Source: Labilithrix sp.
Lineage (GTDB): Bacteria > Myxococcota_A > Polyangia > Polyangiales > Polyangiaceae
NCBI GenBank assembly: GCA_019637105.1
Contig: JAHBWF010000064.1
Span: forward strand, 1 to 41,077
Direction: 5' to 3'
DNA: 41,077 nt
Shown: piece by piece, positions 3 to 17,305 of the stretch
Numbering within the stretch: position 1 is the first letter of the stretch
Layout of the letters: every line of letters starts with the position of its first letter
Translations under genes and position numbers: made by a program
Notes under the pieces: generated by a model
Databases searched by the model: none
Told to the model about the DNA's origin: nothing
The model's input: only the letters and a program-made list of their open reading frames with translations

Positions 3-1265
3 TCCCCGGCGGGGCGTGTCGGGCTGCCGTCGACGACCGCGCCGGCCGCGAGGGCGGACGCGCCGCCCAGCCTGGTCGCGGAGGGGAGCAACTACGTCCG
101 CCCGATCCGGCGCGGCCTCGCCTGGTGGGGCTTCGTCCAGGCGCAGTACCAGCGCAACGACCTCTCGGAGGACCAGCTCGCGCCCGGCGGCGAGCCGCTG
201 AACCAGGACGAGTTCGCGCTCCGGCGCGCGCGCCTGCGCATCGATCACGGGTGGGAGAACGCCGCCGCGACCCTCGAGATGGACGCGTCGACCCTGAACG
301 GCGTCCGCGTCGGGCCGCGCCGCGCGGAGGCGTCGCTCCTCTACCGCGGCGCCGACGACGACACGATCACGCCGCGGCTGGTGCTCACCGCGGGCATCAC
401 GGATCTCCCGTTCGGCGCGGAGATCGGCGAGTCGCAGCGCGATCGCGTGTTCATGGAGCGGAGCATCGGCTCGACGGCGCTCTTCCCGAGCGAGGCGGAC
501 ATCGGCGTCAAGCTCTGGGGCGCGTACCGCTTCCTCAACTACGCGGTCGCCGTCGTGAACGGTCAGCCGCTCGTCGACGCGGCGTTCCCGCGCGATCCGG
601 TCGCCGCCAAGGACGTCGTCGGCCGCGTCGGCGCGCGCGCGCCGGTCGACCCGTCCTTCGTCGTCGAGGGCGGCGTCTCGTTCTGGAACGGCACCGGCTT
701 CAGCCCGGGGCGCGACGCGACGAAGGCGTCGGTCACGTGGATCGACGACAACAACAACGGCTTCGCCGAGCCCCACGAGCTGCAGGGCGTGACCGGCTCG
801 GCGGCGGTCCCGTCGCAGACCTTCCGTCGGTGGGCGCTCGGGCTCGACCTCGGCGTGTCCAAGCGGACCGCGCTCGGCGTCTCGCGCCTCTCCGGCGAGG
901 TGACCGCCGCGTCGAACCTCGATCGCGCGCTCCTGGTCTCGGATCCGATCCTCTCGGGAGCGGACGTGCGGCAGCTCGTGCTCAGCGTGTCGGCCGTCCA
1001 GCAGATCACCGACTACGGCCTCGTCGGCTTCCGCGCGGCCTACTACGATCCGAACAGCGACGTCTTCGAGCAGCGCGCCGGCGTCTTCCACATCAAGGAC
1101 GAGTCGTTCTGGGTCCTGTCGCCCACGATCGGCCTCACGCTGTCGCACGGCCGGCTCGTCGCTCAGTACGACGTCGTCGCCGATCACCTCGCGCGGGACG
1201 ACCGAGGCGTCCCCACCAACGCGAAGAACAACCAGCTCACGCTCCGCCTGCAGGTGGACCTGTGA
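3..1265 (+). CDS. OprO/P-like outer-membrane porin, 5' truncated by window edge
   Basis: The frame is open from the first complete codon at position 3, so the true start and signal peptide lie upstream of the window. The visible part reads as a 16-stranded-type porin: an N-terminal stretch LNQDEFALRRARLRID, then a segment on a membrane-facing face, then TDLPFGAEIGESQRDRVFMERS, a pattern typical of the phosphate-selective porin O/P family (strand, short turn, LPFG/TPFG, ERS). It ends in hydrophobic QVDL. The protein is a clear paralogue of the porin at 14163-15659 (shared blocks LNQDEFALRRARLR versus LNEDRFLLRRARLR and NLDRALLVSDPI versus NLDRGLFVSDPI). It leads the visible part of a + strand operon and its TGA overlaps the next gene's GTG. 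Expected role: passive outer-membrane channel, perhaps for phosphate or another anion. Family assignment is confident; substrate is inference. Confidence 0.8.
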   Translation, partial: SPAGRVGLPSTTAPAARADAPPSLVAEGSNYVRPIRRGLAWWGFVQAQYQRNDLSEDQLAPGGEPLNQDEFALRRARLRIDHGWENAAATLEMDASTLNGVRVGPRRAEASLLYRGADDDTITPRLVLTAGITDLPFGAEIGESQRDRVFMERSIGSTALFPSEADIGVKLWGAYRFLNYAVAVVNGQPLVDAAFPRDPVAAKDVVGRVGARAPVDPSFVVEGGVSFWNGTGFSPGRDATKASVTWIDDNNNGFAEPHELQGVTGSAAVPSQTFRRWALGLDLGVSKRTALGVSRLSGEVTAASNLDRALLVSDPILSGADVRQLVLSVSAVQQITDYGLVGFRAAYYDPNSDVFEQRAGVFHIKDESFWVLSPTIGLTLSHGRLVAQYDVVADHLARDDRGVPTNAKNNQLTLRLQVDL

Positions 1266-2248
1266 GGCGGATCGTTCGAGCGTCGTCCGCGTGCCTCGCG
1301 TGCCTCGTCTCCGGCGGGTGCGGCGGGACGCGCGTCACCGAGGGGCTCGAGGAGCCGTTCGCGGTCCACGACGCGCAGTTCCTCGAGGGGGAGCTCCCGG
1401 GCGCGCCCCCCGACCAGGGGACCGCGCCTCCGCGCCCGACCGCCGCGACGACGGAGACCACGGTGCTCCGCCCGGGGCTCCCCGGCGTCGCGTTCTTCGG
1501 CTGGGCGACGCTCGACGCGGTCTCCGTCGCGGCGAAGATCGAGGGGCAGGGGAGCGGCTACTGGGTGGTGCCGGCGGGGCCGCCCGATCCGCAGGTGCAG
1601 GGCGAGCCGGTCCGCGTCTGGCGCTTCGTCGCCGATCTCCACCGCTCGCTCGCGCCGGGGCGTCATCGGCTGCTCGTCTCCGCGCTGGACGACGCGGGGC
1701 GCGCCGGCAACCAGGTCGCGACGTCGCTCTGCGTCCACCGCCGCGTGCCGGACAACGGCAACGCGTGCGACGCCGCGAAGGCGCCGCCGGAGCTCGCGGT
1801 CAGCCTCGAGTGGGATCGGCCGGTCGACCTCGACCTCGTCGTCGTCACGCCGAGCGGCGAGGCGATCGCCGCGCGCAGCCCCGCGAAGGGCCTCGGCGCG
1901 GAGGAGAAGATCAGCCGGAGCTCGCCGGACACGAACCCGCCGGGCGCCGGATACCTCGACTTCGACTCGAACAACGGCTGTCGCGTCGACGCCCGGCAGC
2001 TCGAGAACGTCGTGATCCAGGAGCGCCCGGCCCCGGGCTCGTACCTCGTCTACGCGAACCTGTACGCCGCGTGCGGCGAGCCCTCCGCCCGGTACACGGT
2101 CACGCGCTGGTCGAGGGGCGTCGTGGATCCCTCGGCGGGCACCTACGAGGTCGTCGAGGCGGAGCGGTGGAGCGGGACGGCCCTGGCGATTCAGGCCAAC
2201 GGAGGCACGCGCCTCGGGACCTTCGTGGCCGAGTTCTTCGTGCCCTAG
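1262..2248 (+). CDS. Secreted DUF2135/YfaP-like lipoprotein
   Basis: Starts with GTG inside the stop codon of the porin (GTGA overlap), so it is translationally coupled. The N-terminus is basic then hydrophobic (ACLACLVSGGC), an imperfect lipobox that suggests a lipidated or exported protein. The C-terminal half contains the block WDRPVDLDLVVVTPSGEA followed by YLDFDSNNGC and a late PGSYLVYANLYAACGEP, a beta-sandwich pattern like DUF2135/YfaP or pre-peptidase C-terminal domains, where the DLDL acidic loop usually binds metal. The paralogue at 13267-14163 has the same order (NEADLDLHVVLPSG, FLDRDSNAMC, PGRYVVRVDTFSLCGAP), including the two conserved cysteines, so the pair is genuine. Length 328 residues. 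Role unknown; constant partnership with the porin and receptor suggests a surface or periplasmic accessory of that complex. Confidence 0.75.
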   Translation: MRRIVRASSACLACLVSGGCGGTRVTEGLEEPFAVHDAQFLEGELPGAPPDQGTAPPRPTAATTETTVLRPGLPGVAFFGWATLDAVSVAAKIEGQGSGYWVVPAGPPDPQVQGEPVRVWRFVADLHRSLAPGRHRLLVSALDDAGRAGNQVATSLCVHRRVPDNGNACDAAKAPPELAVSLEWDRPVDLDLVVVTPSGEAIAARSPAKGLGAEEKISRSSPDTNPPGAGYLDFDSNNGCRVDARQLENVVIQERPAPGSYLVYANLYAACGEPSARYTVTRWSRGVVDPSAGTYEVVEAERWSGTALAIQANGGTRLGTFVAEFFVP

Positions 2249-2261
2249 GAGGCATCAAGCG

Positions 2262-3017
2262 ATGTTGATCGAACGTCTGACGAAGCTGGCGCTCCTCGGG
2301 AGCTCGTGGGTCCTCTATCTGTTGCTCGTCCTGTCGGTGATCTCGATCGCCACGATGGTCGAGCGCTGGATCTACTTCGCGCGCCGGAGCGGCGACCTCG
2401 AGGAGCAGCGACCGCGGCTCGTCGCCCGCCTCGACGCGGCGGACCTCGACGGCCTCGAGAAGCTCCTCGCCGCGGATCGCTCGCTGCAAGGCCGCATCGC
2501 GCGCGAGGCGCTCCGGTGGCTGCACGGCGGACCCGAGGCGATGGCCGACGCCGTGGACGCCGAGCTGTCGCGCATCCGCGCGGAGCTCGAGCGGGGCGTG
2601 AACCTCCTCGGCACCCTCGGGAACAACGCGCCGTTCATCGGCCTGTTCGGCACGGTGCTCGGCGTCATCATCGCGTTCCACTCGCTCGGCGAGTCGGGGG
2701 GCAACGCCGGCGCGATGGGCGGCGTGATGGGCGGCATCGCGGAGGCGCTCGTCGCGACGGGCGTAGGCCTCTTCGTCGCGTTGCCCGCGGTCGTCGCGTA
2801 CAACCTCATCCAGCGGAGGATCGGCCAGATCGAAGCGGACGCCGCGGCGCTGGTGAAGCTCATCAGCGCGTACGCCAAGTCGGATCCGCGCATCCTCGAG
2901 CGCGCGCGCGCGCGGAGCGTGAAGGGGGCGCGTCAGCAGCAGCGCGCGCGGATCGACGACGGCTCGGCCCGCGACGAGGGCTCCGCCGTCGCCGTCGCCA
3001 GCGAGGCGAAGGGCTGA
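2262..3017 (+). CDS. exbB: ExbB/TolQ-family proton channel subunit
   Basis: MotA/TolQ/ExbB family protein of 251 residues. The first membrane helix is at about residues 13-35, then a cytoplasmic stretch rich in charged residues, then the diagnostic segment GNNAPFIGLFGTVLGVIIAF (about 122-141) and a third helix GIAEALVATGVGLFVALPAV. These are the helices that form the proton path with ExbD. A Shine-Dalgarno TAGGAGG lies 9 nt before the ATG. With the next two genes it forms a dedicated TonB motor inside the porin/receptor operon: ExbB-ExbD use proton motive force in the inner membrane to energise TonB. The stop overlaps the ATG of exbD (TGATG). The C-terminal tail from about residue 215 is charged and low complexity. 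Only this operon carries a motor; the paralogous operon at 9818-17305 has none and may borrow this one. Confidence 0.92.
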   Translation: MLIERLTKLALLGSSWVLYLLLVLSVISIATMVERWIYFARRSGDLEEQRPRLVARLDAADLDGLEKLLAADRSLQGRIAREALRWLHGGPEAMADAVDAELSRIRAELERGVNLLGTLGNNAPFIGLFGTVLGVIIAFHSLGESGGNAGAMGGVMGGIAEALVATGVGLFVALPAVVAYNLIQRRIGQIEADAAALVKLISAYAKSDPRILERARARSVKGARQQQRARIDDGSARDEGSAVAVASEAKG

Positions 3018-3433
3018 TGGCCTCCGTGCAGGCGGCCCGCGGCCCGGGGAACCGCGGAGGCATCGTCGGGATCAACGTCACGCCGTTCGTCGACATCGCG
3101 CTCGTGCTGCTCATCATCATGATGGTCTCGTCGACGTACATCGTCTCGCAGGCGCTCAAGGTCGAGCTGCCGAAGACGGCCACCTCGGACGGCAAGGTGA
3201 CGAAGACCTACGTGGTCACGATCGACAAGGGGGGCGAGCTCCTCTTCAACGACGCGCCCGCGACGCTGAAGGGCCTCGAGGCGCAGCTCAGGGCGGCGCG
3301 CGCGTCCGAGGACGTCAGCCTCGTCATCAGCGCGGATCAGGCGGCCCTGCACGGCCGCGTGGTGGAGATCATCGACACGGCGAAGCTCGCGGGCGTCACG
3401 AAGTTCGCGATCAACGTCGAGCGCTCGAAGTAG
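3017..3433 (+). CDS. exbD: ExbD/TolR-family biopolymer transport protein
   Basis: 138-residue protein with the ExbD plan: short cytoplasmic N-terminus, one membrane helix beginning INVTPFVDIALVLLIIMMV, and a periplasmic domain. Asp26 in TPFVDIA aligns with the essential protonatable aspartate of ExbD/TolR. The periplasmic part contains LVISADQAALHGRVVEIIDTAK, the usual 'D..A....v...mD' helix of the family, and ends KFAINVE. The start ATG overlaps the exbB stop, showing translational coupling in a fixed ratio. Works with ExbB as the proton-driven stator for the TonB protein encoded 6 nt downstream. Confidence 0.92.
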   Translation: MASVQAARGPGNRGGIVGINVTPFVDIALVLLIIMMVSSTYIVSQALKVELPKTATSDGKVTKTYVVTIDKGGELLFNDAPATLKGLEAQLRAARASEDVSLVISADQAALHGRVVEIIDTAKLAGVTKFAINVERSK

Positions 3434-3439
3434 CGAGCC

Positions 3440-4078
3440 ATGTCGCTGCGTGGTGTCCTCATCGGCGGAAGCCTCCTGGCGCACGGCGGGCTCGTCGTCG
3501 CGCTCGGAGCGCTCCGCGCGCCGGCGTCGGCGTCGGCGTCGGCGATCGAGGTGACCGAGACGGTGAAGCCCGAGCCGGCGCCCGCGCCGCCGTCGCCGCC
3601 GCCCGAGCCGGCGGAGGTCCAGGAGGCGCCGCCTCGCGCGCGGAGCGCTCGCGGCGCCTGCTTGACTTCGGGTCAGCTCAGCGGAGGGAGCGGCCCCGGC
3701 GGCTTCGCGCTGCCCGCGGCCGCGCCGCCGCCGCGCGCGGTCGAGGTGGTCGCGAAGACGCTGGAGAAGGCGCCCGCGCCGAAGCGCGCGCTCGACGCCT
3801 GCGACGAGCCGCCCGCGAAGCCGAAGCTCCTCGGCCTCCCTCAGCCGGCGTACACCGAGGCCGCGCGCGCGGCGGGCGTCGAGGGGAAGGTCCGCCTGGA
3901 GATCACCGTCGACGAGGCGGGCAAGGTCGTCGACGTCCGCGCGCTCACGAGCCTCGGCCACGGCCTCGACGAGGCGGCGATCGCGGCGGCGCGCCTGGCC
4001 ACCTTCGAGCCGGCCGTGCGCTGCGGACGGCCCAGCCGCTCGACGTTCACCGTCGCCGTGCGCTTCTCCGCGTCGTGA
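3440..4078 (+). CDS. tonB: TonB energy transducer
   Basis: 212 residues with the classic TonB arrangement: one N-terminal signal-anchor helix (residues about 5-26), a Pro/Ala/Glu-rich periplasmic spacer (EPAPAPPSPPPEPAEV), and a C-terminal TonB domain of about 80 residues with LPQPAYTEAARAAGVEGKV, VDEAGKVVDVRALTSLG, and LDEAAIAAARLATFEPA. Four cysteines flank the domain, including DACDEP and AVRCGRP, which could form disulfides. It spans the periplasm and transmits ExbB-ExbD energy to outer-membrane receptors, most simply the receptor encoded next, whose GTG start overlaps this stop. It is distinct from the TonB-like domain carried by the receptor itself. Confidence 0.88.
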   Translation: MSLRGVLIGGSLLAHGGLVVALGALRAPASASASAIEVTETVKPEPAPAPPSPPPEPAEVQEAPPRARSARGACLTSGQLSGGSGPGGFALPAAAPPPRAVEVVAKTLEKAPAPKRALDACDEPPAKPKLLGLPQPAYTEAARAAGVEGKVRLEITVDEAGKVVDVRALTSLGHGLDEAAIAAARLATFEPAVRCGRPSRSTFTVAVRFSAS

Positions 4079-6747
4079 GTCCGATGCTCGGAGCTCGCCT
4101 TCGCCGCGCGTTCGCCCTCGCCGTCGCGACGACGCTCGTCCCGAGCGGCGCGCGCGCCCAGCCCGCGCCCGCGCGGGGGGAGGCGCCGAAGCCGCGCCTG
4201 ACGAAGCCGCCGGAGCTCGTCGACTTCGTCGAGGCCGTCTACCCCGAGGACGAGCTCCGCGAGGGCCGCGCCGCGACCGTCGTCCTCGAGCTCGCGATCT
4301 CCGCGGCCGGCGCCGTGGAGGCGGCCGTCGTCGTGAAGGGGGCGGGGGCGGCCTTCGACGCGGCCGCGGTGGACGCCGCGCGCCGCTTCACGTTCCGCCC
4401 GGCGGAGGTGGACCACAAGCCCGCGCCGGTCAAGATCACCTACCGCTACGTGTTCACGCCGAAGGCGGCGGTCGAGACCACGGGCAAGCTCCGCGGCGTC
4501 GTCCTCGACAAGGCGTCCGGCCGACCGCTCGCGGGCGTGGCCGTCGAGGTCGACGGCGTCGGTCGCGTGGTCACGAACGCGGAGGGCGAGTTCGCGTTCG
4601 ACGACGTCCCGGTCGGGGAGGCGAAGGTCACGCTCTCCCGATCGGACCTCACGCCGCTCCGGACGCAGGAGACCGTCGAGGCGGGGCGGACCCTCGAGGC
4701 CCGCTACTCCGTCGAGCTCCCCGCGCCGGAGGGCGCCGCCGACGACGAGGACAAGGACGACTTCGAGGTCGTCGTGCTCGCGCCGAAGCTCGTCAAGCAG
4801 ACCGTCAGCACCGAGGTCGGCGCGGAGGAGGCGCGGCGCGTCCCGGGCACGCAGGGAGACGTGCTCAAGGTGGTCGAGAACCTCCCGGGCGTCGCGCGCG
4901 CGAGCGCGGGCTCGGGGCAGCTCGTCGTATGGGGGGCGGCGCCTCAGGACACGCGCACGTACGTCGGCGCCGTTCGCGTGCCGATGCTCTATCACTTCGG
5001 CGGCCTCCGATCGGTCGTCCACAACGACCGCGTCGCGTCGGTGGAGCTCGTCCCCGGCGGGTACGGCGCCGCGTACGGGCGCGGGCTCGGCGGGCTCGTC
5101 CGCGTCACGACGCGCGAGCCGGCGCGCGATCGCCTCCACGGCAGCGCGCAGCTCGACCTCCTCGACGCGTCGGCCGCCGTGACGGCGCCGATCGGCGAGC
5201 GCCTCTCGTTCGCGATCTCCGCGCGGAGGAGCCACGTCGCGGACGCCGCGCGCCTGCTCGAGGATCAGAGCTTCCAGGCGTTCTTCACCTTGCCCGAGTA
5301 CCACGACGGGCAGGCGCGCCTCCGCTACCAGCTCGCGCCGAACGAGTGGGTCGAGGTCGGCGGCATGCTCTCGGGCGATCGCCAGTCGCGGACGCAGCCG
5401 AGCAACGATCCCGCGAACCGCGTCTCCGAGACGCGGACGCTCCGCTTCGAGCGCTACGACGTCGCGTACCACAAGCAGCTCGCCGACGGCGCGGAGGTGG
5501 ACGTCGCGCCGTGGTACGGCCACGACGTCGGAGGCCGCGCCGGCGACTTCGGCGGAGTGCCGACGAGCGTCGAGACGGAGTCCCACCTCGTCGGGCTCCG
5601 CGCCGAGTGGCGCGGCCGGCTGGCCGAGGCGTGGACGGCGCGCGCGGGCCTCGATCTCGAGCTCGTCCAGAGCGAGTCGAACCGGAGCGGCTCGATCACG
5701 TCGCCGCCCCGCGAGGGCGACGCCTACGTGTTCGGCCGGGCGCCCGCCGATCAGGTGAGCGCCGACGTCTGGAAGTCGGTCATCGCGAGCGCGGCGCCCT
5801 ACGCCGAGACGTCGTGGGGCCTCTTCCGCGATCGCGTCGTCCTCACGCCCGGCGTCCGGCTCGAGCCGTACTTCATCAGCGTCGACCGGCGAAAGCCGCA
5901 CGACCCGAACGCGCCGGATCTCGGAGCGTACCTCTCCGACGTCGCGATCCAGCCGCGCTTCGCCGCGCGCTGGGCGTCGAGCGAGCGGCTCACCTACAAG
6001 GCGGCCGTCGGCCTGTATCGGCAGCCGCCGCTCCCCGACGATCTGTCCGCGATCTTCGGCAACCCCGCGCTCGGGATCTCCACGGGGACGCACTACGTCG
6101 GCGGCGCGGAGCTCCGCGCCACGTCCGACCTCGCGATGGAGACGAACGTCTTCCACACCACGTCCGACGAGCTCGTCGCGCGCAACCCCTCGAGCAGCCC
6201 GCGGGTCGGGGAGGCGCTCCTCCAGCAGGGCGAGGGACGCTCGGTGGGCGCGCAGTTCCTCCTGCGACGCGAGAAGGGCGCCGGCAGGTTCTTCGGCTGG
6301 ATCGCGTACACGATCCTCCGGAGCGAGCGGAAGGACTCGCCCGGCGCGCGCTGGCGGCTCTTCGACTACGACCAGACCCACGTGCTGACGGCGCTCGCGT
6401 CGTACGACCTCGGCGCCGGCTTCGAGGTCGGCGCGCGCGCGCGCGTCGCCTCGGGGTATCCGCGGACGCCGCTCCAGTACATCTACTTCGACGCGCGCAG
6501 CAATCGCTACGAGCCGACGCTCGGCGTCTACAACACCGATCGGATCCCGGTCTTCCTCCAGCTCGACGTCCGTGTCGCCAAGCGCGTCAAGCTGAGCGGC
6601 TCGGAGCTCGAGGTCTACCTCGACGTGCAGAACGTGACGAACCGCGGGAACCCGGAGGAGATCGCGTACGCGCCGGACTACTCGCACCGGCGGTACATCC
6701 TGGGCCTGCCCATCCTCCCGATCCTCGGCGCGCGCTGGAGCTTCTGA
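4075..6747 (+). CDS. TonB-dependent receptor with N-terminal TonB-C-like and carboxypeptidase-regulatory-like domains
   Basis: 890-residue outer-membrane receptor. Order seen: signal peptide (1-29, ends ARAQ), a TonB C-terminal-type domain at about 42-128 (AVYPEDELREG, FDAAAVDAARRFTFRPAEVD), a carboxypeptidase-regulatory-like beta domain at 138-215 (GVVLDKASGRPLAGVAVEV, TNAEGEFAFDDVPVGE), an acidic linker, a plug from about 235 (VPGTQGDVLKVVENLPGV, then VELVPGGYGAAYGRGLGGLV), and a barrel ending LGARWSF with terminal Phe. Plug and barrel are typical of TonB-dependent transporters. Having a TonB-type domain on the receptor is odd, because that domain normally sits on the inner-membrane transducer. 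GTG start overlaps tonB (alternative ATG at 4084). The paralogue at 10738-13260 shares the TonB-like domain but not the regulatory-like domain. Substrate unknown. Confidence 0.88.
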   Translation: MSPMLGARLRRAFALAVATTLVPSGARAQPAPARGEAPKPRLTKPPELVDFVEAVYPEDELREGRAATVVLELAISAAGAVEAAVVVKGAGAAFDAAAVDAARRFTFRPAEVDHKPAPVKITYRYVFTPKAAVETTGKLRGVVLDKASGRPLAGVAVEVDGVGRVVTNAEGEFAFDDVPVGEAKVTLSRSDLTPLRTQETVEAGRTLEARYSVELPAPEGAADDEDKDDFEVVVLAPKLVKQTVSTEVGAEEARRVPGTQGDVLKVVENLPGVARASAGSGQLVVWGAAPQDTRTYVGAVRVPMLYHFGGLRSVVHNDRVASVELVPGGYGAAYGRGLGGLVRVTTREPARDRLHGSAQLDLLDASAAVTAPIGERLSFAISARRSHVADAARLLEDQSFQAFFTLPEYHDGQARLRYQLAPNEWVEVGGMLSGDRQSRTQPSNDPANRVSETRTLRFERYDVAYHKQLADGAEVDVAPWYGHDVGGRAGDFGGVPTSVETESHLVGLRAEWRGRLAEAWTARAGLDLELVQSESNRSGSITSPPREGDAYVFGRAPADQVSADVWKSVIASAAPYAETSWGLFRDRVVLTPGVRLEPYFISVDRRKPHDPNAPDLGAYLSDVAIQPRFAARWASSERLTYKAAVGLYRQPPLPDDLSAIFGNPALGISTGTHYVGGAELRATSDLAMETNVFHTTSDELVARNPSSSPRVGEALLQQGEGRSVGAQFLLRREKGAGRFFGWIAYTILRSERKDSPGARWRLFDYDQTHVLTALASYDLGAGFEVGARARVASGYPRTPLQYIYFDARSNRYEPTLGVYNTDRIPVFLQLDVRVAKRVKLSGSELEVYLDVQNVTNRGNPEEIAYAPDYSHRRYILGLPILPILGARWSF

Positions 6748-6748
6748 G

Positions 6749-7840: not shown

Positions 7841-7869
7841 TTGTTTAATGGATGGTTGTTCGTTATAGT
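7841..7869 (+). promoter_or_regulatory. Candidate sigma-70-type promoter for the sigma-54 activator
   Basis: TTGTTT at 7841-7846 and TATAGT at 7864-7869 are separated by exactly 17 bp, in an AT-rich patch that stands out from its surroundings. The -10 box matches 5 of 6 consensus bases, the -35 box 3 of 6. Six bases separate the -10 box from the ATG at 7876, so transcription would begin at or next to the start codon. Confidence 0.5.
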
Positions 7870-7875
7870 GGATTC

Positions 7876-9753: not shown

Positions 9754-9780
9754 GCGCGCGTCGAGCGCGGCCCTCTCCGG

Positions 9781-9796: not shown

Positions 9797-9817
9797 CGCC
9801 CTCGAGCCGAGCGCGCC

Positions 9818-10738
9818 TCACCTCGTCACGAGCGCGTGCGTCGCGAACGCGACGCCGCCGCGGATGTCGCGGAGGACGACGAAGAGGTGGGTCGTGCCGG
9901 CCGCGCGGGGCGCCGTCCAGGCGTTCGTCGTCGCGGTCTCGAGCTCGTCCTCCGAGCGCCCGGTGCGATCGCTCTCGAAGCTCCCGTCCGTCGCGAACCA
10001 CGAGACGCGCATCGCCTCGCGGCGCTCGACGAGGGCGCGGCTCGCGAGGTCGTAGACCACGTAGCGCTCCGCCGCCTCGGCCGGCCAGCTCACGCGGAGC
10101 GAGAGCGTCGCGCCGCTCGGGATCGCGTCGAGCGCGACGGGGGCGCCGTCGAGCGTGGCCTCGAGGGGGCCGAGCTCGGGGTTCGCGTTGGCGACGTAGC
10201 GCCGGCCGTAGTCCGTCGTCACGTCGGCGGCGGCGTTGGCGAGCGCGCAGCCCACGCGCTCTAGGCCGAAGGCCACGGCCGTCTCGGCGCCGTCCGTGAC
10301 GGTGACGCGCACCGGCTGGTAGTAGCCGCCGGTGACGTCGGGATCGCGCGGGCGGAGGTCGGCCGACGTGACCTCGGGGCCGAAGAGCGCGCACGCGTCC
10401 GGCGGGAGCGCGGCGGCGGCCGTGGGGACGCCCTCGGCGATCGGCCGGACGCCGCCCTGGAGGCAGGCCGCGCCCGCGGCGCCGTTCTCCGTCAAAAGCT
10501 TCGGCGTCGCGCACAGCGCCCAGCTCGCCCTCGGCTCGGAGATCGGTCCCTCGGGGCTCGCGACGAGGAGCGACCACGAGACGGTCTCGCCGGGCTTCGC
10601 CTCCGGCGGCTCGCCGCGCACCGCGAGCACCTGGGTCCGCGTGATCCGCGACTCGCGATCCCCGAGATCGGGGCGGCAGGCGAACGGCGCGCTCGCGACC
10701 GCCGCGCCGAAAACGAGCGCGTGGAGCCGGCGGCGCAT
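9818..10738 (-). CDS. Operon-terminal lipoprotein (paralogue of 6749-7801)
   Basis: 306 residues; ATG overlaps the TGA of the upstream receptor gene (TGATG). Signal sequence HALVFGAAVASAPFAC gives a lipobox-like APFAC. Shares with 6749-7801 the blocks QVLAVRGEPPEAKPGE, VTGGYYQPVRV, RVSWFATDGSFESDRTGRSE and TTNAWTAP followed by RDIRGGVAF, so the two are one family. It lacks the CGDGxC cysteine module found in the other copy. Last gene of the - strand operon that begins at 17305. Probably anchored in the outer membrane next to the receptor; biochemical function unknown. Confidence 0.7.
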   Translation of the reverse strand: MRRRLHALVFGAAVASAPFACRPDLGDRESRITRTQVLAVRGEPPEAKPGETVSWSLLVASPEGPISEPRASWALCATPKLLTENGAAGAACLQGGVRPIAEGVPTAAAALPPDACALFGPEVTSADLRPRDPDVTGGYYQPVRVTVTDGAETAVAFGLERVGCALANAAADVTTDYGRRYVANANPELGPLEATLDGAPVALDAIPSGATLSLRVSWPAEAAERYVVYDLASRALVERREAMRVSWFATDGSFESDRTGRSEDELETATTNAWTAPRAAGTTHLFVVLRDIRGGVAFATHALVTR

Positions 10739-13260
10739 CAGAGCTCGAGCCTCCCGCCGACGACGGCGATGAACGGCAGGCCGGTGATGATCCCGCGCCG
10801 CCGGAAGTCGGCCGAGTAGGCGATCTCCTCGGCGTTCTCCCGGTTCGTCACGTTCTGGAGATCCGCGAACACGAGCGCGCGGACGTCCCTCCCGAGCTCG
10901 AAGGTGCGGTCGACGCGGAGATCGAGCTGCCAGAACGCCGGGACGCGCGTCGTGCCCTGCGGGCCGAACACCGGATCGAACCGATCGGAGCGCGCGTCGT
11001 AGACGCTGCCGACGACGGGCGTGCGCGGGTTCCCGCTCGCGTAGCGGAAGCGCGCGCCGACGCTCCAGCGGCCGATCTCCTGGCTCGCGACGAGCGACAG
11101 GACGTGCGGCTGGTCGAAGTCGAACGGCCGCCAGGCCTCGTCGCCCTCGAAGCGGCGCTCGCTCTTGGTGACGGCGTACGACGCCCAGCCGAAGAACCCG
11201 CGCCACAGCTCCTGGCGGAGGAGGAGCTGGACGCCGTAGCTGCGCCCCTCGCCGTTCTGCGTGAGCGCGCGCGCGCGGAGCGGGTTCGGCAGGCGGCTCC
11301 GCACGACGAGGTCCCTCATGCGCTTGTCGAACGCGACGACGTCGATCGTCAGCGAGTCGGTGACGCGGAGCGACTCGCCCGCCGTGACGTGCAGAGCGCG
11401 CGAGAGCCCGAGCTCCGGGGTCCCGAACACCGCGGAGAGGTCCTCCGGCTCGGGCGGCTGGTGGTAGCTGCCGTAAGCGGCGGTGAACGCGAGCCGACGC
11501 GTCACGTCCCACCGCGCCGACGCGCGCGGCGCGACCGTCGTCTCCATGCGCGAGAAGCCGATCGGCGGGACGTTTCCGGCCGGGGGCAGCCGCTTGCTGC
11601 CCTCGATGACGAAGGCGTCGACGCGGACGCCCGGCGTCAAGGTCACGGGGCCGACGCGGACGTCGGCGTAGACGTGCGGGCCGACGTCGAGGACGTGCGT
11701 CTTCCAGCGATCGAGCGCGTACTCGTCGCCGGGAGGCTGCCCGAAGACGGCGACGTCGCCTTCGCGCGGCGGGAGCGTGAGCGAGCCCTCGCGCTCGACG
11801 CTCGACGCCGTCCCGAGGGCGTCCATCCCGGTGACGAGCACGACGCGCGAGCCGAGCTTCGAGCGGAGCGACGCCCGGACCCCGTAGCGATCGGAGGCGA
11901 CGTCGAGGCGCGTCGGGTTCGCGCCGAAGCGCTGCGCGAGCGAGCTCGTGTCTCGACCGAAGAACGGCGTGACGGTCGCGGTGTCGCCGTCGTCGGAGAC
12001 GTTCGTGTACCGCGCGTACGCGCGCCAGAACCCCGATCGCGTGGCCTCGACGCGGCGCTTCGCCGGATCGGGCGAGGGGACCGTGCGGTCGAGCTCGTCG
12101 GACGAGAGGAGGACGACCGTGTCGACGCTCTCGCGCCTGCGCAGATCGACGGTGGCCTTGAGCTGCGCGTCGCGGTAGCGCGGGATCGGGAAGAGGTCGC
12201 CGACGTCGGGCGCGCTCGTGGCGGCGAAGACGCGGTCGAGCCAGCCGTACCGGAGCGCGCTCCCGATCCGGACGCGCTCGCCGATCTCGGTCGACACGAA
12301 CGCCGAGCCGTCGAGGGTGTCCGCGCCGACGTAGCCGTGCGTCCCGCGCGGCAAGCTCCGCGTCTCGACGCGGACCAGCCCCCCGAGCCCGCGCCCGTAC
12401 TCCGCGCCGAACGCGCCCGGGACGAGATCGATGCTCGCGACGAGGTCGGAGTTGATCGTCCCGCGGAGGCCGCTGCCGTGGTAGAGCGCTGGGAGATCGA
12501 CCCCGTCGACGTAGACGCGCGTGTCCTTGGGCGCCGAGCCCCAGACGACGATCTGCCCCGACGCGACGGGCGGGCGCGAGACGCCGGGGAGGTTCTGCAC
12601 CACCTTCAAGACGTCGCCCTGCGTGCCGGCGACCTTCTTCGCCTGCTCGGCGCGCACGGCGTAGTCGACGACCTCGCGCCGCGCGCGCGGGCCGCCGCGG
12701 ATCGCCACCTCGTCGACGACGTCGTTCCCGCCCGTCCGCGCGCCGGCGGCCGTCGCGTCGCCGGGCGTCGCCCCGGCCTCGCCGGCCGGCGGCGGGGCGA
12801 CGGGCGCCGCGGTCTCGGGCGCCGAGGGCGGCCGGGCCGGAGGGGGAGGCGGCTCCTGCGCGATGACGAAGTCGTAGCGGTAGGTGATCTTCGCCGGCGC
12901 GGGTTTGTCGTCGACCTCGGCGGGCTCGAACTCGAAGCCCGCGGCGGCGGCGACGGCGGCCGCGTCGAAGTCCGCCCCGGCGCTCTCGGCGACGGAGACG
13001 TTCGTGACCTTCCCCGTGGCGCCGATCTCGATCGTCAGGACGACCGACGCCGAGACGCCGGCGCGCTTCTTCGCCGCGGGGTACTCGGCCTCGACGAACC
13101 GCACGAGGCGGGGCATCTTCGTGAGCTTCCGCTTGGTGGGCTGCCCGCCGACGTCCGAGCCGCGCTGCTGCGCGAGCGCGGGGGCCGGCGCGCCCGTGAC
13201 GAGCGCGAGGCTCGCGAGCAGCGCCGGGGAGAGGAACGCGACGTTGCGGCGGCCGCGCAT
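10738..13260 (-). CDS. TonB-dependent receptor with N-terminal TonB-C-like domain
   Basis: 840 residues. Signal peptide (1-30, ALAQ), TonB C-terminal-type domain at about 51-131 (EAEYPAAKKRAGVSASVV, FDAAAVAAAAGFEFEPAEVD), a Pro/Ala-rich linker at about 135-180 in place of the carboxypeptidase-regulatory-like domain of its paralogue, then the plug (VAGTQGDVLKVVQNLPGV, VYVDGVDLPALYHGSGLRG, IDLVPGAFGAEYGRGLGGLV) and a barrel ending VGGRLEL. The barrel C-terminus ends in Leu rather than Phe. The ATG follows the lipoprotein gene by 6 nt and the stop overlaps the next gene. Presumed to import a substrate across the outer membrane with TonB-ExbB-ExbD energy, but this operon encodes no motor. Confidence 0.88.
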   Translation of the reverse strand: MRGRRNVAFLSPALLASLALVTGAPAPALAQQRGSDVGGQPTKRKLTKMPRLVRFVEAEYPAAKKRAGVSASVVLTIEIGATGKVTNVSVAESAGADFDAAAVAAAAGFEFEPAEVDDKPAPAKITYRYDFVIAQEPPPPPARPPSAPETAAPVAPPPAGEAGATPGDATAAGARTGGNDVVDEVAIRGGPRARREVVDYAVRAEQAKKVAGTQGDVLKVVQNLPGVSRPPVASGQIVVWGSAPKDTRVYVDGVDLPALYHGSGLRGTINSDLVASIDLVPGAFGAEYGRGLGGLVRVETRSLPRGTHGYVGADTLDGSAFVSTEIGERVRIGSALRYGWLDRVFAATSAPDVGDLFPIPRYRDAQLKATVDLRRRESVDTVVLLSSDELDRTVPSPDPAKRRVEATRSGFWRAYARYTNVSDDGDTATVTPFFGRDTSSLAQRFGANPTRLDVASDRYGVRASLRSKLGSRVVLVTGMDALGTASSVEREGSLTLPPREGDVAVFGQPPGDEYALDRWKTHVLDVGPHVYADVRVGPVTLTPGVRVDAFVIEGSKRLPPAGNVPPIGFSRMETTVAPRASARWDVTRRLAFTAAYGSYHQPPEPEDLSAVFGTPELGLSRALHVTAGESLRVTDSLTIDVVAFDKRMRDLVVRSRLPNPLRARALTQNGEGRSYGVQLLLRQELWRGFFGWASYAVTKSERRFEGDEAWRPFDFDQPHVLSLVASQEIGRWSVGARFRYASGNPRTPVVGSVYDARSDRFDPVFGPQGTTRVPAFWQLDLRVDRTFELGRDVRALVFADLQNVTNRENAEEIAYSADFRRRGIITGLPFIAVVGGRLEL

Positions 13261-13266
13261 CGAGCC

Positions 13267-14163
13267 TCAGGGCACGTCGAGCTCGAGGGCGAGCACGCCC
13301 CCGCCCCGGTTGTGCTCGAAGCGCGCGTCGATCTCGGTGCTCGTGCCCTCCGCCGCGCCGATGCGCGTCCCGTCGAGCACCGCCTCGACGCGCCACGGAG
13401 CGCTCGGCGCTCCGCACAGCGAGAACGTGTCGACGCGCACGACGTAGCGACCGGGCGGCGGAGGCTCGGTCCACACGACGTTCTCCGCGCGCGCGCCGTC
13501 CTGGACGCACATCGCGTTGGAGTCGCGATCGAGGAAGCCGCCGTCCGTCGGGGCGTTCGGATCGACGGGCCCCGCGCTCGGCGGCGGCCGCTGGTACTCG
13601 GTGCGGTTGCGCTTGAAGATCTCGAGGCCGCTCGGGAGCACGACGTGGAGATCGAGGTCGGCCTCGTTCTGCCACGAGAGCGAGATCACGAAGCGCCCGG
13701 CCGGGCGGGCGGCGGGGACGACCTCGAGCGGCCGCGTCGTGGCGGGCCCGAACCTCCCCGTCGCGTCGACCGCCCGGAGGACCACGTCGTACCTGCCGGG
13801 GCGCGCGCTGCCGGAGAGCCCGAGCACGGCGTCGAAGGTGGGCGACGAGGGGGCGGAGGCGAGCGGGATCCCGGCGGGCAGGACCCAGTAGCCGACGTCC
13901 GACGAGAGGCCGATCGCGATGGCGGTCGCCGCGCGCTCGAGCTCGCCGGCGCAGGCGCGCTCGACGACGCCCGCGCGCGCCCGCGAGACGACGGTCGCCG
14001 AGAGCACCGCGGGGCCGTCGTCCTCCTCCGGCATCGCCCTCCGGAAGAACTGCGCCCCGTCGACCCGCAGCGTCGCGTCGCGTCCCTCGTCGGCGCGCGT
14101 GCCCTCGCAGGCCGCGAGCGCGATCCACGCCGGGGCGACGAGCGCGACCGCGAGGCGGCGCAT
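13267..14163 (-). CDS. DUF2135/YfaP-like lipoprotein (paralogue of 1262-2248)
   Basis: 298 residues, lipobox ALAAC after a clear hydrophobic signal, so lipidation is more certain than in the paralogue. C-terminal beta-sandwich with NEADLDLHVVLPSGLEIF, FLDRDSNAMC and PPGRYVVRVDTFSLCGAP, matching the DLDL acidic loop and two conserved cysteines of 1262-2248. An N-terminal domain contains VGYWVLPAGIPL, which parallels SGYWVVPAGPPD in the other copy. Start ATG overlaps the porin's stop (TGATG). Conserved position between porin and receptor in both operons implies a structural or substrate-handling role in the same complex. Confidence 0.78.
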   Translation of the reverse strand: MRRLAVALVAPAWIALAACEGTRADEGRDATLRVDGAQFFRRAMPEEDDGPAVLSATVVSRARAGVVERACAGELERAATAIAIGLSSDVGYWVLPAGIPLASAPSSPTFDAVLGLSGSARPGRYDVVLRAVDATGRFGPATTRPLEVVPAARPAGRFVISLSWQNEADLDLHVVLPSGLEIFKRNRTEYQRPPPSAGPVDPNAPTDGGFLDRDSNAMCVQDGARAENVVWTEPPPPGRYVVRVDTFSLCGAPSAPWRVEAVLDGTRIGAAEGTSTEIDARFEHNRGGGVLALELDVP

Positions 14164-15659
14164 CAGAAGCGCACCTCGGCGCGCAGCGTGAACGAGTCGT
14201 CGGCGAGCGTCGTCGGGCGCCCGGACGCGTCGCGCCCGAGCGCGTTCTTTCGATGGTCGTACTGGGCGACGAGCCGCGCGACGCGCGTACGCCCCGTCGC
14301 GCTGAAGGACCAAGTGGACATCGACACGTCGCGCGGCACGAGCGCGAAGGGCTCCTGCTCGCGGGCGTCCGCGTCCGGATCGTAGCGGTCGTAGCGCACG
14401 CCGACGAGCGCCCAGCGCGTGATCTCCTGGGCCGCGCCGACGTAGTAGCCGAGCTGGCGGAGGTCGCGCGTCGCCGCGATCGGATCCGAGACGAAGAGGC
14501 CGCGATCGAGGTTGTTCCCCCGGACGACCTCGGCGCGCAGGTGGAGGTCGCCGAGCGCCGGGAGCGCGATCGTCGCGCGCAGATCGGCGCCCACCGCGAA
14601 GCGCTTGAAATTGGCCGAGGGCGTCGCCGGCGAGCCCGGGATGATCTGGAGCTCGGTCGTGTTGTCGACGATCCCGTCGGCGTTCGAGTCCTGCCACTGG
14701 ACCAGGTCCTTGGTGGCGGCCGCGCCGCGGTGGAAGCCGCGCCCGCTCACGCCCGAGAGCCCGCCGTCGACGCGCACGGCGTCGGTCACCGCGGTCGCTC
14801 CGCCGACGCGGAAGACGAGGTCCTTGCTCTCGTTGGGATCGCGCCCCGGGAACGTGCGCTGGCCGATCGGCTCGCCGTTCATGATCGCGAAGGCGTAGCG
14901 GAGGAAGCGGTAGCCGCCGAGGACGCGCAGGCCGAGATCGAACGACTGCGGGAACAGCGCGGCCGACATGGTCGAGCGCTCGAGCCAGGGCCGCTCGCGC
15001 TCGGACTCCGGCACCTCGAAGCCGAACGGCGTGCGGAAGAGCCCCGCGGTCACCATGAACCAGGGCGCGTCGCGCTCGCGGGCGGCCGGCGCGGGCGCGT
15101 CCTTCGACCACGCGCGCCGCGGGGCCGTCTCGTACGCCCACGGCGTGTGGGGATAGGCGCGGCTCGCGGGCCACTTGAACGAGGCCTCGGCGTTGATCGG
15201 GCGGAGCTGCGGGCCGTCGATCGTGTTCGCGTCGATCTCGAACGCGCCGTGGAACAGGCCGTCGTCGCGCTCGGCGCGGAGGCGCGCGCGGCGCAGGAGG
15301 AAGCGGTCCTCGTTCAGCGGCTCGCCGTCCTGCGTGAGCTCGTCCTGCGACGACTGGCGGAGGACCACCCAGTCCATGTGGACGTAGCCGGAGACCGCGA
15401 CCGGCGGGGCCGCCTCGCGCCGCGCGGCCGCCTCCTCTTCGAGGCGCGCCACCCGCGCCGCGAGGTCCTCGGTCGCGCTCGAGGCCGCGCTCTGCGGCGA
15501 GGCGCCCGGCGCCGAGGCGCTCTGCGGTGAGGCGCTCGGCGGCGAGGCGCCCGGCGCCGGCTCGCGTGGAGCGCTCGTCTCTGCCCGCGCGCCGGCGCTC
15601 GACAGCGCGCAGACCAGAAGGACCGCGCGGCTCGCTCTCCTCACGATCGCGGGCTGCAC
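14163..15659 (-). CDS. OprO/P-like outer-membrane porin
   Basis: 498 residues. Signal peptide ends GARAE; a short coiled coil (DLAARVARLEEEAAARRE, about residues 48-65) precedes the barrel, as in many porins that trimerise or bind the cell wall. Barrel motifs: LNEDRFLLRRARLRAERDDG, FEIDANTIDG, TAGLFRTPFGFEVPESERERP and LERSTMSAALFP, then terminal AEVRF with Phe. These match the phosphate-selective porin O/P family. The GTG start at 15659 has AGGGA four to five bases upstream and a TATAGG box 6 nt upstream; a second in-frame GTG lies 5 codons in. Third gene of the operon headed by the phosphate-binding-like protein, which fits anion uptake, though substrate is not shown by sequence. Confidence 0.82.
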   Translation of the reverse strand: MQPAIVRRASRAVLLVCALSSAGARAETSAPREPAPGASPPSASPQSASAPGASPQSAASSATEDLAARVARLEEEAAARREAAPPVAVSGYVHMDWVVLRQSSQDELTQDGEPLNEDRFLLRRARLRAERDDGLFHGAFEIDANTIDGPQLRPINAEASFKWPASRAYPHTPWAYETAPRRAWSKDAPAPAARERDAPWFMVTAGLFRTPFGFEVPESERERPWLERSTMSAALFPQSFDLGLRVLGGYRFLRYAFAIMNGEPIGQRTFPGRDPNESKDLVFRVGGATAVTDAVRVDGGLSGVSGRGFHRGAAATKDLVQWQDSNADGIVDNTTELQIIPGSPATPSANFKRFAVGADLRATIALPALGDLHLRAEVVRGNNLDRGLFVSDPIAATRDLRQLGYYVGAAQEITRWALVGVRYDRYDPDADAREQEPFALVPRDVSMSTWSFSATGRTRVARLVAQYDHRKNALGRDASGRPTTLADDSFTLRAEVRF

Positions 15660-15665
15660 TCTGTC

Positions 15666-15694
15666 CCTATACCTCCGTTGCGTTCCGTTGCGTG
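15666..15694 (-). promoter_or_regulatory. Candidate internal promoter and tandem repeat upstream of the porin
   Basis: On the - strand a TATAGG box (15671-15666) ends 6 nt before the porin's GTG. Just upstream is a 10-bp near-perfect tandem repeat, CCGTTGCGTT then CCGTTGCGTG on the + strand (15675-15694). No convincing -35 box. Tandem 10-11-bp repeats in this position are reminiscent of response-regulator sites such as Pho boxes, but the sequence does not match the enterobacterial Pho consensus in gene orientation. Confidence 0.3.
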
Positions 15695-15716
15695 CGCGGC
15701 GCGACCGCGCCGGCGC

Positions 15717-16040
15717 TCAGTCGAGCGGCGGGAGCCCGCCGTCGGGCAGGAGCTTCGACAGGGTCGGGTTCTTCTCGATCCGCGTCGCGTTCGTGCACGC
15801 GTTGATGATCTCGAAGTGGGTCTTGGGGTCGTCGAAGCAGTCCTTCGGCGCGCCGTCCGGCAGGGTGCCCGCGTCGAAGCCGCCGCCGCCGTCCGCGGCG
15901 CCGTCGGCGCCCGTGCCGGGGCCCGCGTCCGGCGACGCCTCCTTCACCGCGGACGAGCTGTCGTCGCACGCGACGACGGCGACGGCGGAGGCGACGGCGA
16001 GCGCGCAGCCGAGGAGGCCTGCGTGGATCTTCTTCTTCAT
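15717..16040 (-). CDS. Small lipoprotein with conserved THFEIINACT tail
   Basis: 107 residues, ATG 2 nt after the stop of the phosphate-binding-like gene. Signal peptide ends in lipobox VVAC; then an Asp/Gly/Ala-rich linker (GPGTGADGAADGGGGFDAG), typical of myxobacterial lipoproteins, and a compact C-terminal motif CFDDPKTHFEIINACTNATRI followed by NPTLSKLLPDGGLPPLD. Two cysteines flank the motif and may pair. I recognise no named domain. Tight coupling to the gene upstream suggests it is a tether or cofactor of that periplasmic protein, perhaps docking it at the outer membrane near the porin. Confidence 0.72.
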   Translation of the reverse strand: MKKKIHAGLLGCALAVASAVAVVACDDSSSAVKEASPDAGPGTGADGAADGGGGFDAGTLPDGAPKDCFDDPKTHFEIINACTNATRIEKNPTLSKLLPDGGLPPLD

Positions 16041-16042
16041 GA

Positions 16043-17305
16043 CTACCTCGCCTCGCAGAAGCCGAAGCGGCACTTGCCGCCGTTGCAGGGAGCGTCGTTC
16101 CCGACCGTGCACGCGGTGCAGGTCGTCGTCCCTTGCGGGACGTTCTTCTCGAAGTAGCAGCCGCACGGCGCCGGATCCTCGTAGAGCGAGAGGTCCGCGC
16201 CGTCGCCCGTGCGGGTCACCTTCATCGCGCACTCCGGGACGAGGCCGCTCTGCACGACCTGGAGGAGCCCGTCGACGTCGTCGCCCGTGCGCGTGCCCAT
16301 CACGAGCTCGTAGAAGCGCCGCGCGTTCGCGTCCGTGATCGTCTTCGTGCCCGGCGTCACGGTCGCGATGTACGGCGTCGGAGACCAGGGGAGGTAGTGG
16401 CCGTCGCGAACGTTCTGCTTGTCGAAGCGCGTGCTGGTCGAGTCGGGGAAGTAGGCGAACCGCTGGCCGAACGTCTTGAACGCCAGCAGCTTGATGTCCG
16501 CGCGGCGCTGATCGAACAGCTCGGTGCCGAGGATGCCGAGCGTCGCCTCGGGGGTCGGGCTGTTCATCACCGACGCGATGAGGTCCTCCGACGTCCCCGA
16601 GCTCGCCGCGGCCTGCATCTGGGTCGGGAGCAGCCGGATCGCCGAGGCCATCGTGAGGGTCGTGCTCGCGGTGTTGCCGCGCTTGAACCGCAGGTTCTGC
16701 ACGGTCCACGGGGCGGCCTCGCCGCCGCCCTCGGTGAAGCCGTACGCGAGGTAGCCCTCCTCCGCGGTGATGGCGACCTGGCTGCTGCTCTTGTTCGTGA
16801 TGAACGCGTACGCCTGCACGGGGCCCTCGAAGACGCCGATATCGTTCGGCTGCGCGGGGGTCTGCGTGCAGCTCGAGAGGTACGTCGCGCCGATGCCGAG
16901 CGCGATCGGCTCGGCGGGCGGTCCGTCGGGGACGGTGCACGTCGGGGCCGGCCCCGACGGATCGAAAGCCGCGCTGGAGGGGATGTACCGCACCGGTCGG
17001 GGCGTCGCCCCGTCGGCCACGGTGGTCATGAGCGCGTGGCTGAAGAGGTCGTCTCGGATGTTGCAGGTCGGGCGGTTGCGGTAGAAGACGCGGAGCTTCG
17101 ACGACGACTGCATCAGGAGCTTGCCGATCTTCTTGACGATCGGCTCCTGGGTGTCTCCGTTCTCGATGTAGAGCGCGGGGACGTTGTTGTCTTCGTCCGA
17201 CAGGCTCGCGCAGGGATCGCCGTCCGCCGCGACGGCGCGCCCGGAGACGGCGACGAGTGAGACGGCGAGCGCACAACCGAGCGCTCGCGAGGGCTCGCTT
17301 CGCAT
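16043..17305 (-). CDS. Periplasmic phosphate-binding-like (type 2 PBP) protein with Cys-rich tail
   Basis: 420 residues with cleavable signal peptide (about 1-27, VAA-DG). The body resembles PstS-like substrate-binding proteins of myxobacteria: ALYIENGDTQEPIVKKIGKLL at the start, TYLSSCTQTP and VFEGPVQAYAFITNKSS followed by ITAEEGYLAYGF, FKRGNTASTTLTMASAI, and FAYFPDSTSTRFDKQNVRDG. Residues about 381-420 form a tail with seven cysteines (PCGCYFE, CTACTVG, CNGGKCRFGFCEAR). A strong Shine-Dalgarno GGGAGGAA precedes the ATG. It heads the operon that continues with a small lipoprotein, porin and TonB-type receptor. No PstCAB-type inner-membrane permease is encoded nearby, so it may act as a scavenging or surface-associated binder. 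Ligand identity is inference. Confidence 0.72.
   Translation of the reverse strand: MRSEPSRALGCALAVSLVAVSGRAVAADGDPCASLSDEDNNVPALYIENGDTQEPIVKKIGKLLMQSSSKLRVFYRNRPTCNIRDDLFSHALMTTVADGATPRPVRYIPSSAAFDPSGPAPTCTVPDGPPAEPIALGIGATYLSSCTQTPAQPNDIGVFEGPVQAYAFITNKSSSQVAITAEEGYLAYGFTEGGGEAAPWTVQNLRFKRGNTASTTLTMASAIRLLPTQMQAAASSGTSEDLIASVMNSPTPEATLGILGTELFDQRRADIKLLAFKTFGQRFAYFPDSTSTRFDKQNVRDGHYLPWSPTPYIATVTPGTKTITDANARRFYELVMGTRTGDDVDGLLQVVQSGLVPECAMKVTRTGDGADLSLYEDPAPCGCYFEKNVPQGTTTCTACTVGNDAPCNGGKCRFGFCEAR

What the first reader, a model, noticed from the sequence alone, without database searches (positions are those of the whole stretch)
3..17305. A four-gene envelope module occurs twice, facing a sensor-less sigma-54 activator
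The order porin, DUF2135-like lipoprotein, TonB-domain receptor and terminal lipoprotein is seen at 3-7801 (+) and 15659-9818 (-). Each partner pair shares distinctive sequence blocks, so the whole module was duplicated. One copy gained ExbB-ExbD-TonB between lipoprotein and receptor; the other has a phosphate-binding-like protein and small lipoprotein in front. Combining a passive porin with a TonB receptor in one coupled operon is unusual. I propose one outer-membrane uptake or secretion complex built from porin, receptor and two lipoproteins. Function and substrate are inference.
Basis: partly seen in the sequence, partly recalled or inferred. Interest (0 to 1): 0.8.

Follow-up and report, generated by a model that had tools for sequence, protein, structure and literature searches.

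The report
Paired myxobacterial nutrient-uptake outer-membrane operons
Two distantly related copies of an outer-membrane gene cluster sit side by side in a myxobacterium; relatives of the cluster suggest that it scavenges phosphate in some lineages and sulfur (probably sulfate) in others, using an unusual mix of a porin, a binding protein and a TonB-powered receptor.

Summary
The four-gene module is real and occurs twice (paralogues 35-44% identical), but is part of a larger conserved operon: PstS-like protein, small lipoprotein, porin, lipoprotein A, [ExbB-ExbD-TonB], TonB_C-fused receptor, lipoprotein B. Of 140 genomes of the phylum, 15 carry this porin strongly; all 15 carry the PstS-like gene and 14 the whole four-gene core. 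Copy 1 seems to lack its front genes only because the contig starts there. A local duplication is rejected (p-AU 1.3e-14). The sigma-54 activator follows copy 1 on the same strand. Of 23 close homologues, 14 sit beside sulfate ABC operons, and 11 of those operons have -24/-12 sites. Of 38 PstS-like proteins, 15 keep the phosphate pocket (Asp, SGT), 14 have it replaced (class S), 9 differ otherwise. All 9 with a -24/-12 site and all 7 with sulfur-gene neighbours are class S, though with few independent evolutionary changes. Copy 1 is class S; copy 2 is of the third kind. Reading: a TonB-coupled oxyanion scavenging system, copy 1 for sulfur. Complex and substrate untested.

The parts
3..1265 (+). 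porin 1, 5' end cut by the contig end
   Evidence: ORF and coding bias; Porin_O_P E 0.011 below cut-off; family search
1262..2248 (+). lipoprotein A1 (GTG start 1262; lipobox judged by eye)
2262..3017 (+). ExbB
   Evidence: PF01618 E 2.3e-31
3017..3433 (+). ExbD
   Evidence: PF02472 E 9.5e-27
3440..4078 (+). TonB
   Evidence: PF03544 E 1.2e-17
4075..6747 (+). receptor 1: N-terminal TonB_C domain, CarboxypepD_reg, plug (below cut-off, E 7.4e-4), barrel by homology to receptor 2
6749..7801 (+). lipoprotein B1, with an inserted Cys-rich stretch
7852..8964 (+). sigma-54 activator without recognised sensor domain, 50 bp after lipoprotein B1
   Evidence: PF00158 E 3.2e-68; family context
9031..9753 (+). 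conserved hypothetical gene between the modules; membership unsure
   Evidence: no Pfam match; homologue at 61.5% in L130
9818..10738 (-). lipoprotein B2
   Evidence: AlphaFold2 model pLDDT 88, pTM 0.85
10738..13260 (-). receptor 2: N-terminal TonB_C domain, plug, barrel
13267..14163 (-). lipoprotein A2
14163..15659 (-). porin 2
15717..16040 (-). small lipoprotein, 107 aa
   Evidence: homologues 77.6% and 85.0% in L130 and L132
16043..17305 (-). PstS-like protein with Cys-rich C-terminus; pocket Asp and SGT absent
   Evidence: family profile matches PstS1 4exl at E 0.0018; motif table
17400..17415 (.). perfect 16-bp palindrome GTCACACGGGTGTGAC upstream of module 2, candidate operator
   Evidence: conserved in L130 and L132; only occurrence in the held genome with up to 1 mismatch

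Best explanation
Each module is (or was) one operon for scavenging a scarce tetrahedral oxyanion, or compounds bearing it, across the outer membrane. Proposed working: the porin lets the anion in; the PstS-like protein captures it in the periplasm; the receptor, with lipoprotein B as a SusD-like partner, imports a bulkier or rarer form using ExbB-ExbD-TonB; lipoprotein A assists the porin. The family includes a phosphate form (PstS-like pocket kept; some loci have PhoB-like regulators) and a sulfur form in which the pocket lacks the phosphate-recognising Asp and, in several lineages, the genes carry promoters of a sigma-54 sulfur regulon. Module 1 of the window is the sulfur form, probably for sulfate, with its sensor-less sigma-54 activator at its end. 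Module 2 is a third, anciently diverged form without its own ExbB-ExbD-TonB and with a private candidate operator; its substrate is open. Shown: gene content, synteny, phylogeny, pocket motifs, promoter-like sites and neighbours. Inferred: transport direction, energising, substrate, regulation, and any contact between the proteins.
For: Synteny: core module in 14 of 140 genomes; the porin strong in 15, always with the PstS-like gene. Activator co-occurs with the module in 9 genomes (expected 2.1; hypergeometric p 8.7e-6) and sits beside sulfate ABC operons in 14 of 23 places. -24/-12 sites (score 20.5 or more) at 11 of 14 of those operons and at 9 of 38 PstS-like genes, all 9 in pocket class S; 3.2% of 718 control genes reach that score. 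Scores at PstS-like genes are higher in genomes with the activator (11 genes) than without (8), p 0.013. Sbp lies within 5 kb of a module in 3 of 10 strong places. Copy 1's sister loci L111 and L116 both carry Sbp and sulfate permease genes. The Asp is the residue said to discriminate phosphate from other tetrahedral oxyanions in E. coli PstS (passages of PMC5439949).
Against: The window genome (draft, 91.5% complete) has no Sbp match, no marker-set sulfur gene near the modules, and neither module has a -24/-12 site at threshold (17.5 and 20.0). G087 and G104 have the activator, yet the modules L040 and L042 lack the site (16.0, 14.5). Pocket class and promoter each change only 3 times on the tree; the independent-pairs test cannot reach significance. 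Sulfur genes near modules: 8 of 38 against 1 of 26 control loci, p 0.07, with seeds picked from these same loci and shorter control stretches. PhoB/PhoR-like genes flank 7 of 38 modules, one of them class S (L110). The PstS-like protein and lipoprotein B are Cys-rich (3.2% and 2.5%), the reverse of sulfur thrift, though module receptors are Met-poor (0.52% against 0.87% in other receptors). No ABC permease is in the operon.
Confidence: 0.5

Rival explanations
1. All forms, including both in the window, take up phosphate or phosphorus compounds; the sulfur neighbours are coincidental to a few lineages.
For: PstS-like protein; PstS pocket kept in 15 of 38; PhoB/PhoR-like genes near 7 of 38 modules, six regulators and two kinases of five of these loci scanned with NCBIfam and closest to PhoB and PnpS/PhoR.
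Against: Pocket Asp and SGT replaced in 14 class S proteins and at least one of the two altered in the other 9 (one of these, L134, keeps the Asp), including both of the window; the sulfur links found all fall in class S. The PhoB-like matches are below the curated cut-off.
Confidence: 0.22
2. A secretion or export device, comparable to Oar-dependent release of protease PopC in Myxococcus.
For: A TonB-dependent transporter is reported to be required for secretion of PopC in Myxococcus (abstract start and passages of PMC6434023).
Against: A binding protein and a porin fit uptake better. I did not search for a recurring cargo gene; none was obvious by eye in the gene tables seen (24 and 47 were cut).
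Confidence: 0.08
3. Two jobs in one operon: the TonB receptor and lipoprotein B import an organic compound (organosulfur, organophosphate or a chelate), while porin and PstS-like protein handle the inorganic anion; no joint complex.
For: Receptor plus lipoprotein pairs occur in other loci without porin and PstS-like genes; the TonB_C region resembles MxcH, a siderophore receptor.
Against: Near-complete linkage of all parts across families.
Confidence: 0.2

Closest known systems
SfnR sigma-54 activators of Pseudomonas sulfur-starvation genes
   Same: Sigma-54 activator linked to sulfur acquisition genes and -24/-12 sites; in the window without sensor domain. SfnR as a sigma-54-dependent regulator of dimethyl sulfone use is taken from passages of PMC8234197; that it lacks a sensor domain is recalled.
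   Different: Different phylum; many homologues here have about 500 aa with an N-terminal extension, in one of those scanned GAF-like; neighbours are sulfate ABC operons and an outer-membrane module. Orthology to SfnR not tested.
PstS phosphate-binding proteins
   Same: Remote sequence match to PstS1; class P keeps Asp and SGT.
   Different: No Pst permease in the operon, Cys-rich C-terminus, and in 23 of 38 the Asp and SGT signature is replaced or altered.
Phosphate-selective porins O and P
   Same: Porin 1 is marginally similar; a clear family member (E 9.8e-12) heads the sulfate operon of G038.
   Different: Neither window porin reaches the family cut-off.
TonB_C-fused receptors such as the myxochelin receptor MxcH
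   Same: N-terminal TonB_C domain in 17 of 17 module receptors; the MxcH model matches the start of both window receptors.
   Different: Far below the MxcH cut-off; different operon. The N-terminal domains named in passages of PMC6434023 do not include TonB_C.
SusC-SusD type receptor and lipoprotein pairs
   Same: A receptor gene followed by a lipoprotein gene, repeatedly.

Membership tests
PstS phosphate-binding proteins (PBP_like_2) | Sequence or profile match | tested here: inconclusive
   Profile A6 hits PstS1 4exl at E 0.0018; Pfam PBP_like_2 in 1 of 12 members at E 0.0033, not in the window protein
PstS phosphate-binding proteins (PBP_like_2) | Phosphate-recognising Asp and SGT loop | tested here: not met
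   Absent in both copies of the window genome; both present in 15 of 38 homologues
Porin_O_P | Match over the curated cut-off | tested here: not met
   15.5 bits against 20.9 for porin 1, none for porin 2
DUF2135 | Pfam match | tested here: not met
   Only 1 of 13 lipoprotein A homologues at E 0.25
TonB-dependent receptors | Plug and barrel | tested here: met
   At E 0.001: plug in 17 of 17, barrel in 14 of 17 module receptors
MxcH siderophore receptors | NCBIfam equivalog cut-off 925 bits | tested here: not met
   74 and 96 bits
ExbB-ExbD-TonB | Pfam domains over cut-off | tested here: met
SfnR-type activators | Sigma-54 domain without sensor domain | tested here: met
SfnR-type activators | Orthology to Pseudomonas SfnR | not tested
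   no SfnR sequence was fetched
SfnR-type activators | Controls sulfur genes from -24/-12 promoters | tested here: inconclusive
   Sites at 11 of 14 neighbouring sulfate operons in relatives; not seen at the modules of the window genome; control itself not testable here

The most novel reading that the evidence does not exclude
A TonB-energised outer-membrane uptake system for inorganic oxyanions, built from porin, binding protein, receptor and lipoproteins, in which evolution switched one operon family from phosphate to sulfate by replacing the binding-pocket Asp and moving the genes into a sigma-54 sulfur regulon.
Probability: 0.3. Interest if true: 0.8.

Novelty: new variant of a known kind. 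Interest (0 to 1): 0.6.

Why it matters
Phosphate and sulfate are generally held to cross outer membranes by diffusion through porins (recalled). An operon that couples a porin and a PstS-like protein to a TonB receptor would mean that some myxobacteria spend energy on it, or import larger P or S compounds this way. The pocket classes within one operon family give a natural experiment on phosphate versus sulfate recognition, and the activator family points to a sigma-54 sulfur regulon in this phylum (sulfate ABC operons, family 2A encapsulin with cysteine desulfurase, YeeE genes). In my searches of the held library no listed title or abstract start described this module or that regulon; the main text of a survey of sigma-54 regulons, PMC12316311, does not contain the word sulfate (find). 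Only open-licence papers were searched.

Tried and rejected
Local duplication of the module: rejected by tree and AU test. Gain of ExbB-ExbD-TonB by copy 1: not supported as a local event. tRNA-Pro reported by ARAGORN at 5390-5463: lies inside receptor 1, and no Rfam family reached its threshold in 1-18300, so treated as spurious. Sulfur thrift in amino-acid make-up: mixed result. The palindrome as a marker of a wider regulon: single copy in the held genome. The L090 activator was first taken for the same family; it has a receiver domain and was dropped. A D-cysteine desulfhydrase-like gene near G006's module was not counted as a sulfur neighbour because it is below all cut-offs. The promoter threshold of 20.5 was set after seeing the scores, stretches of 300-330 bp were scanned, gene starts are called by my own script, and the control set itself holds some sulfur genes, so the contrast is rough. 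In 5 of the 14 sulfate operons two candidate first genes were scored.
Full report
Observation. The window is one whole contig, G000:C296. Paralogue identities are 43% (porin), 35% (lipoprotein A), 44% (receptor) and 40% (lipoprotein B). Both receptors start with a TonB_C domain, found in 17 of 17 module receptors scanned. The copies are not equal: copy 1 has ExbB, ExbD and TonB, copy 2 does not. The activator at 7852-8964 is on the same strand as copy 1, 50 bp after it, and has no recognised sensor domain.

The operon is larger. The lipoprotein B alignment matched 78 of 140 genomes drawn from the phylum, most of them weakly. The porin, PstS-like and lipoprotein A alignments matched 36, 17 and 48 of 140 at E 0.001, with a clear gap between strong and weak hits. 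Strong porin (over 300 bits) was in 15 genomes. All 15 also had the PstS-like gene, and 14 had strong lipoprotein A, with receptor and lipoprotein B beside them. The exception, G051, has PstS-like protein, a small lipoprotein (by eye) and porin. In those 14 genomes there are 15 modules, two of them in the window genome. Thirteen have all four core genes on one contig (porin 1 of the window cut at its start); in G006 the last gene is cut by a contig end, and G038's module is split between two contig ends. PstS-like genes without the rest in view occur in G032 and G076, and a second one in G104 at a contig end. The usual order is PstS-like, small lipoprotein, porin, lipoprotein A, ExbB, ExbD, TonB, receptor, lipoprotein B. 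The second PstS-like gene of the window genome is at C168:338-1612, followed by a small lipoprotein gene that ends at base 9 of that contig, which fits the cut porin at the start of the window.

History. L132 (Labilithrix) shows the window's layout as far as the locus reaches, with an activator 92% identical. In a tree of five concatenated proteins (33 rows), copy 2 sits with L130 and L132 in a clade of 11 of which 9 lack ExbB-ExbD-TonB between lipoprotein A and receptor, and copy 1 is sister to L111 and L116. Forcing the two copies and their Labilithrix kin together lowers the log-likelihood by 840, p-AU 1.3e-14. So the pair is an old divergence brought or kept side by side, not a recent duplication. 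Absence of ExbB-ExbD-TonB needs 2 changes on this tree; L125 and L131, in the same clade, have the genes in the usual place.

The activator. Homologues at my threshold of E 1e-105 are in 21 of 140 genomes, 23 places. Fourteen places lie beside a sulfate-binding protein and sulfate permease genes: G070, G045, G133, G122, G019, G091, G132, G100, G104, two in G087, and G024, G038, G078. Four more lie within about 8 kb of other sulfur genes: SsuA-like transport in G067, encapsulin 2A, cysteine desulfurase and YeeE genes in G049 and G059, cystathionine gamma-synthase-like in G025. Two lie by the module only (G000, G020); three by neither (G034, G108, G104:C308). Seeds for these labels were checked with NCBIfam and Pfam: sulfate-binding protein, CysW, CysK, encapsulin 2A and cysteine desulfurase pass their cut-offs; SsuA, cystathionine gamma-synthase, CysA and the Sulf_transp match of YeeE fall below theirs (one YeeE half passes DUF6691). 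Activator and module co-occur in 9 genomes, expected 2.1.

Promoters. With a simple -24/-12 score (maximum 23), 3.2% of 718 control genes reach 20.5. Eleven of the 14 sulfate operons beside the activator do (not G122, G019, G078), as do YeeE of G049, encapsulin of G020 and the SsuA-like gene of G067; six sulfate-binding genes with no activator in the held stretch score 19.0 or less. Nine of 38 PstS-like genes reach it: L043, L050, L044, L093, L118, L113, L090, L045, L107. The two of the window genome do not (17.5 and 20.0). In front of copy 2 there is instead a perfect palindrome at 17400-17415, conserved in L130 and L132 and unique in the held genome.

Pocket. The family profile matches PstS1 4exl (E 0.0018); the alignment sets the PstS stretch GNSDVFA and its RAAGSGS loop against the family's columns. 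Of 38 PstS-like proteins aligned, 15 keep an Asp there and SGT (class P); 14 have MG (13) or MQ (1, L113) at that place and SAA, SFV, SYV or SAV in place of SGT (class S); 9 are other, including copy 2 and L134, which keeps the Asp. In E. coli PstS the Asp discriminates phosphate from other tetrahedral oxyanions (passages of PMC5439949). All 7 modules with marker-set sulfur genes nearby and a PstS-like gene in view, and all 9 with a promoter-like site, are class S; 0 of the other 24 (Fisher p 2.7e-4 and 1.2e-5). An eighth sulfur-linked locus, L111, has no PstS-like gene in view. These p values ignore kinship: class and promoter each change 3 times on the tree, and the pairs test found 2 pairs on supported branches, too few for significance. 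G104 carries both kinds: a class P protein (L042) without and a class S protein (L090) with the site. Copy 1 reads FAHMGN and NSFVHQ, nearly as L116 (FAHMGN, GSFVHQ), whose module is divergent from a sulfate operon with cysteine synthase.

Against. PhoB/PhoR-like genes flank 7 of 38 module loci (L110, L112, L114, L117, L124, L126, G085) and 1 of 26 controls at 130 BLAST bits. Of these, five loci were scanned with NCBIfam: the five full-length regulators match PhoB best at 231-253 bits, cut-off 296, and the two kinases PnpS and PhoR. L110 is class S, which does not fit. Marker-set sulfur genes are near 8 of 38 module loci and 1 of 26 controls, p 0.07. The window genome has no sulfate-binding protein match. 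G087 and G104 have the activator but no promoter-like site at L040 and L042. Cys content is high in the PstS-like protein and lipoprotein B.

Verdict. The module is a conserved functional unit. Uptake of phosphorus or sulfur oxyanions, or compounds bearing them, is the best reading; copy 1 most likely serves sulfur, copy 2 is undecided. The predicted fold of lipoprotein B is confident (pLDDT 88) and mostly beta, but could not be compared with known folds. No complex, binding or expression was measured.

Noticed in passing
G000 contigs C5, C290, C135, C57, C289, C81, C89, C43 (L059-L066): Seven of eight other receptor homologues examined in the window genome are followed by a gene for a probable lipoprotein (lipobox judged by eye), like a SusC-SusD pair; the eighth, on C43, is not.
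   Followed up: partly
L167, L166, L093: Family 2A encapsulin and cysteine desulfurase genes, with a YeeE pair in L167 and at least one YeeE gene in L166, lie near the same sigma-54 activator family or the module; -24/-12 sites in front of YeeE in G049 and encapsulin in G020.
   Followed up: partly
window 5390-5463: ARAGORN tRNA-Pro call inside receptor 1 without Rfam support; probably spurious.
   Followed up: yes
window 17400-17415: Unique, conserved 16-bp palindrome in the divergent intergenic region before module 2.
   Followed up: partly
window 9031-9753: Conserved hypothetical gene between the modules, kept in L130, where no activator was labelled in the held stretch.
   Followed up: no
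L043 7328-9962; L049 6927-7885: Receptor gene of G024 and lipoprotein B gene of G020 are each read in two overlapping frames, perhaps frameshifts in the assemblies.
   Followed up: no
L115 2319-7430: A 1703-aa gene sits between small lipoprotein and porin in one module.
   Followed up: no
L095: G059 has a distant porin next to what looks like an ordinary PstS gene (by eye), a simpler arrangement of porin and binding protein.
   Followed up: no
L134 5357-6426: An ExbB-ExbD pair lies about 2 kb upstream of a module that lacks these genes in the usual place.
   Followed up: no
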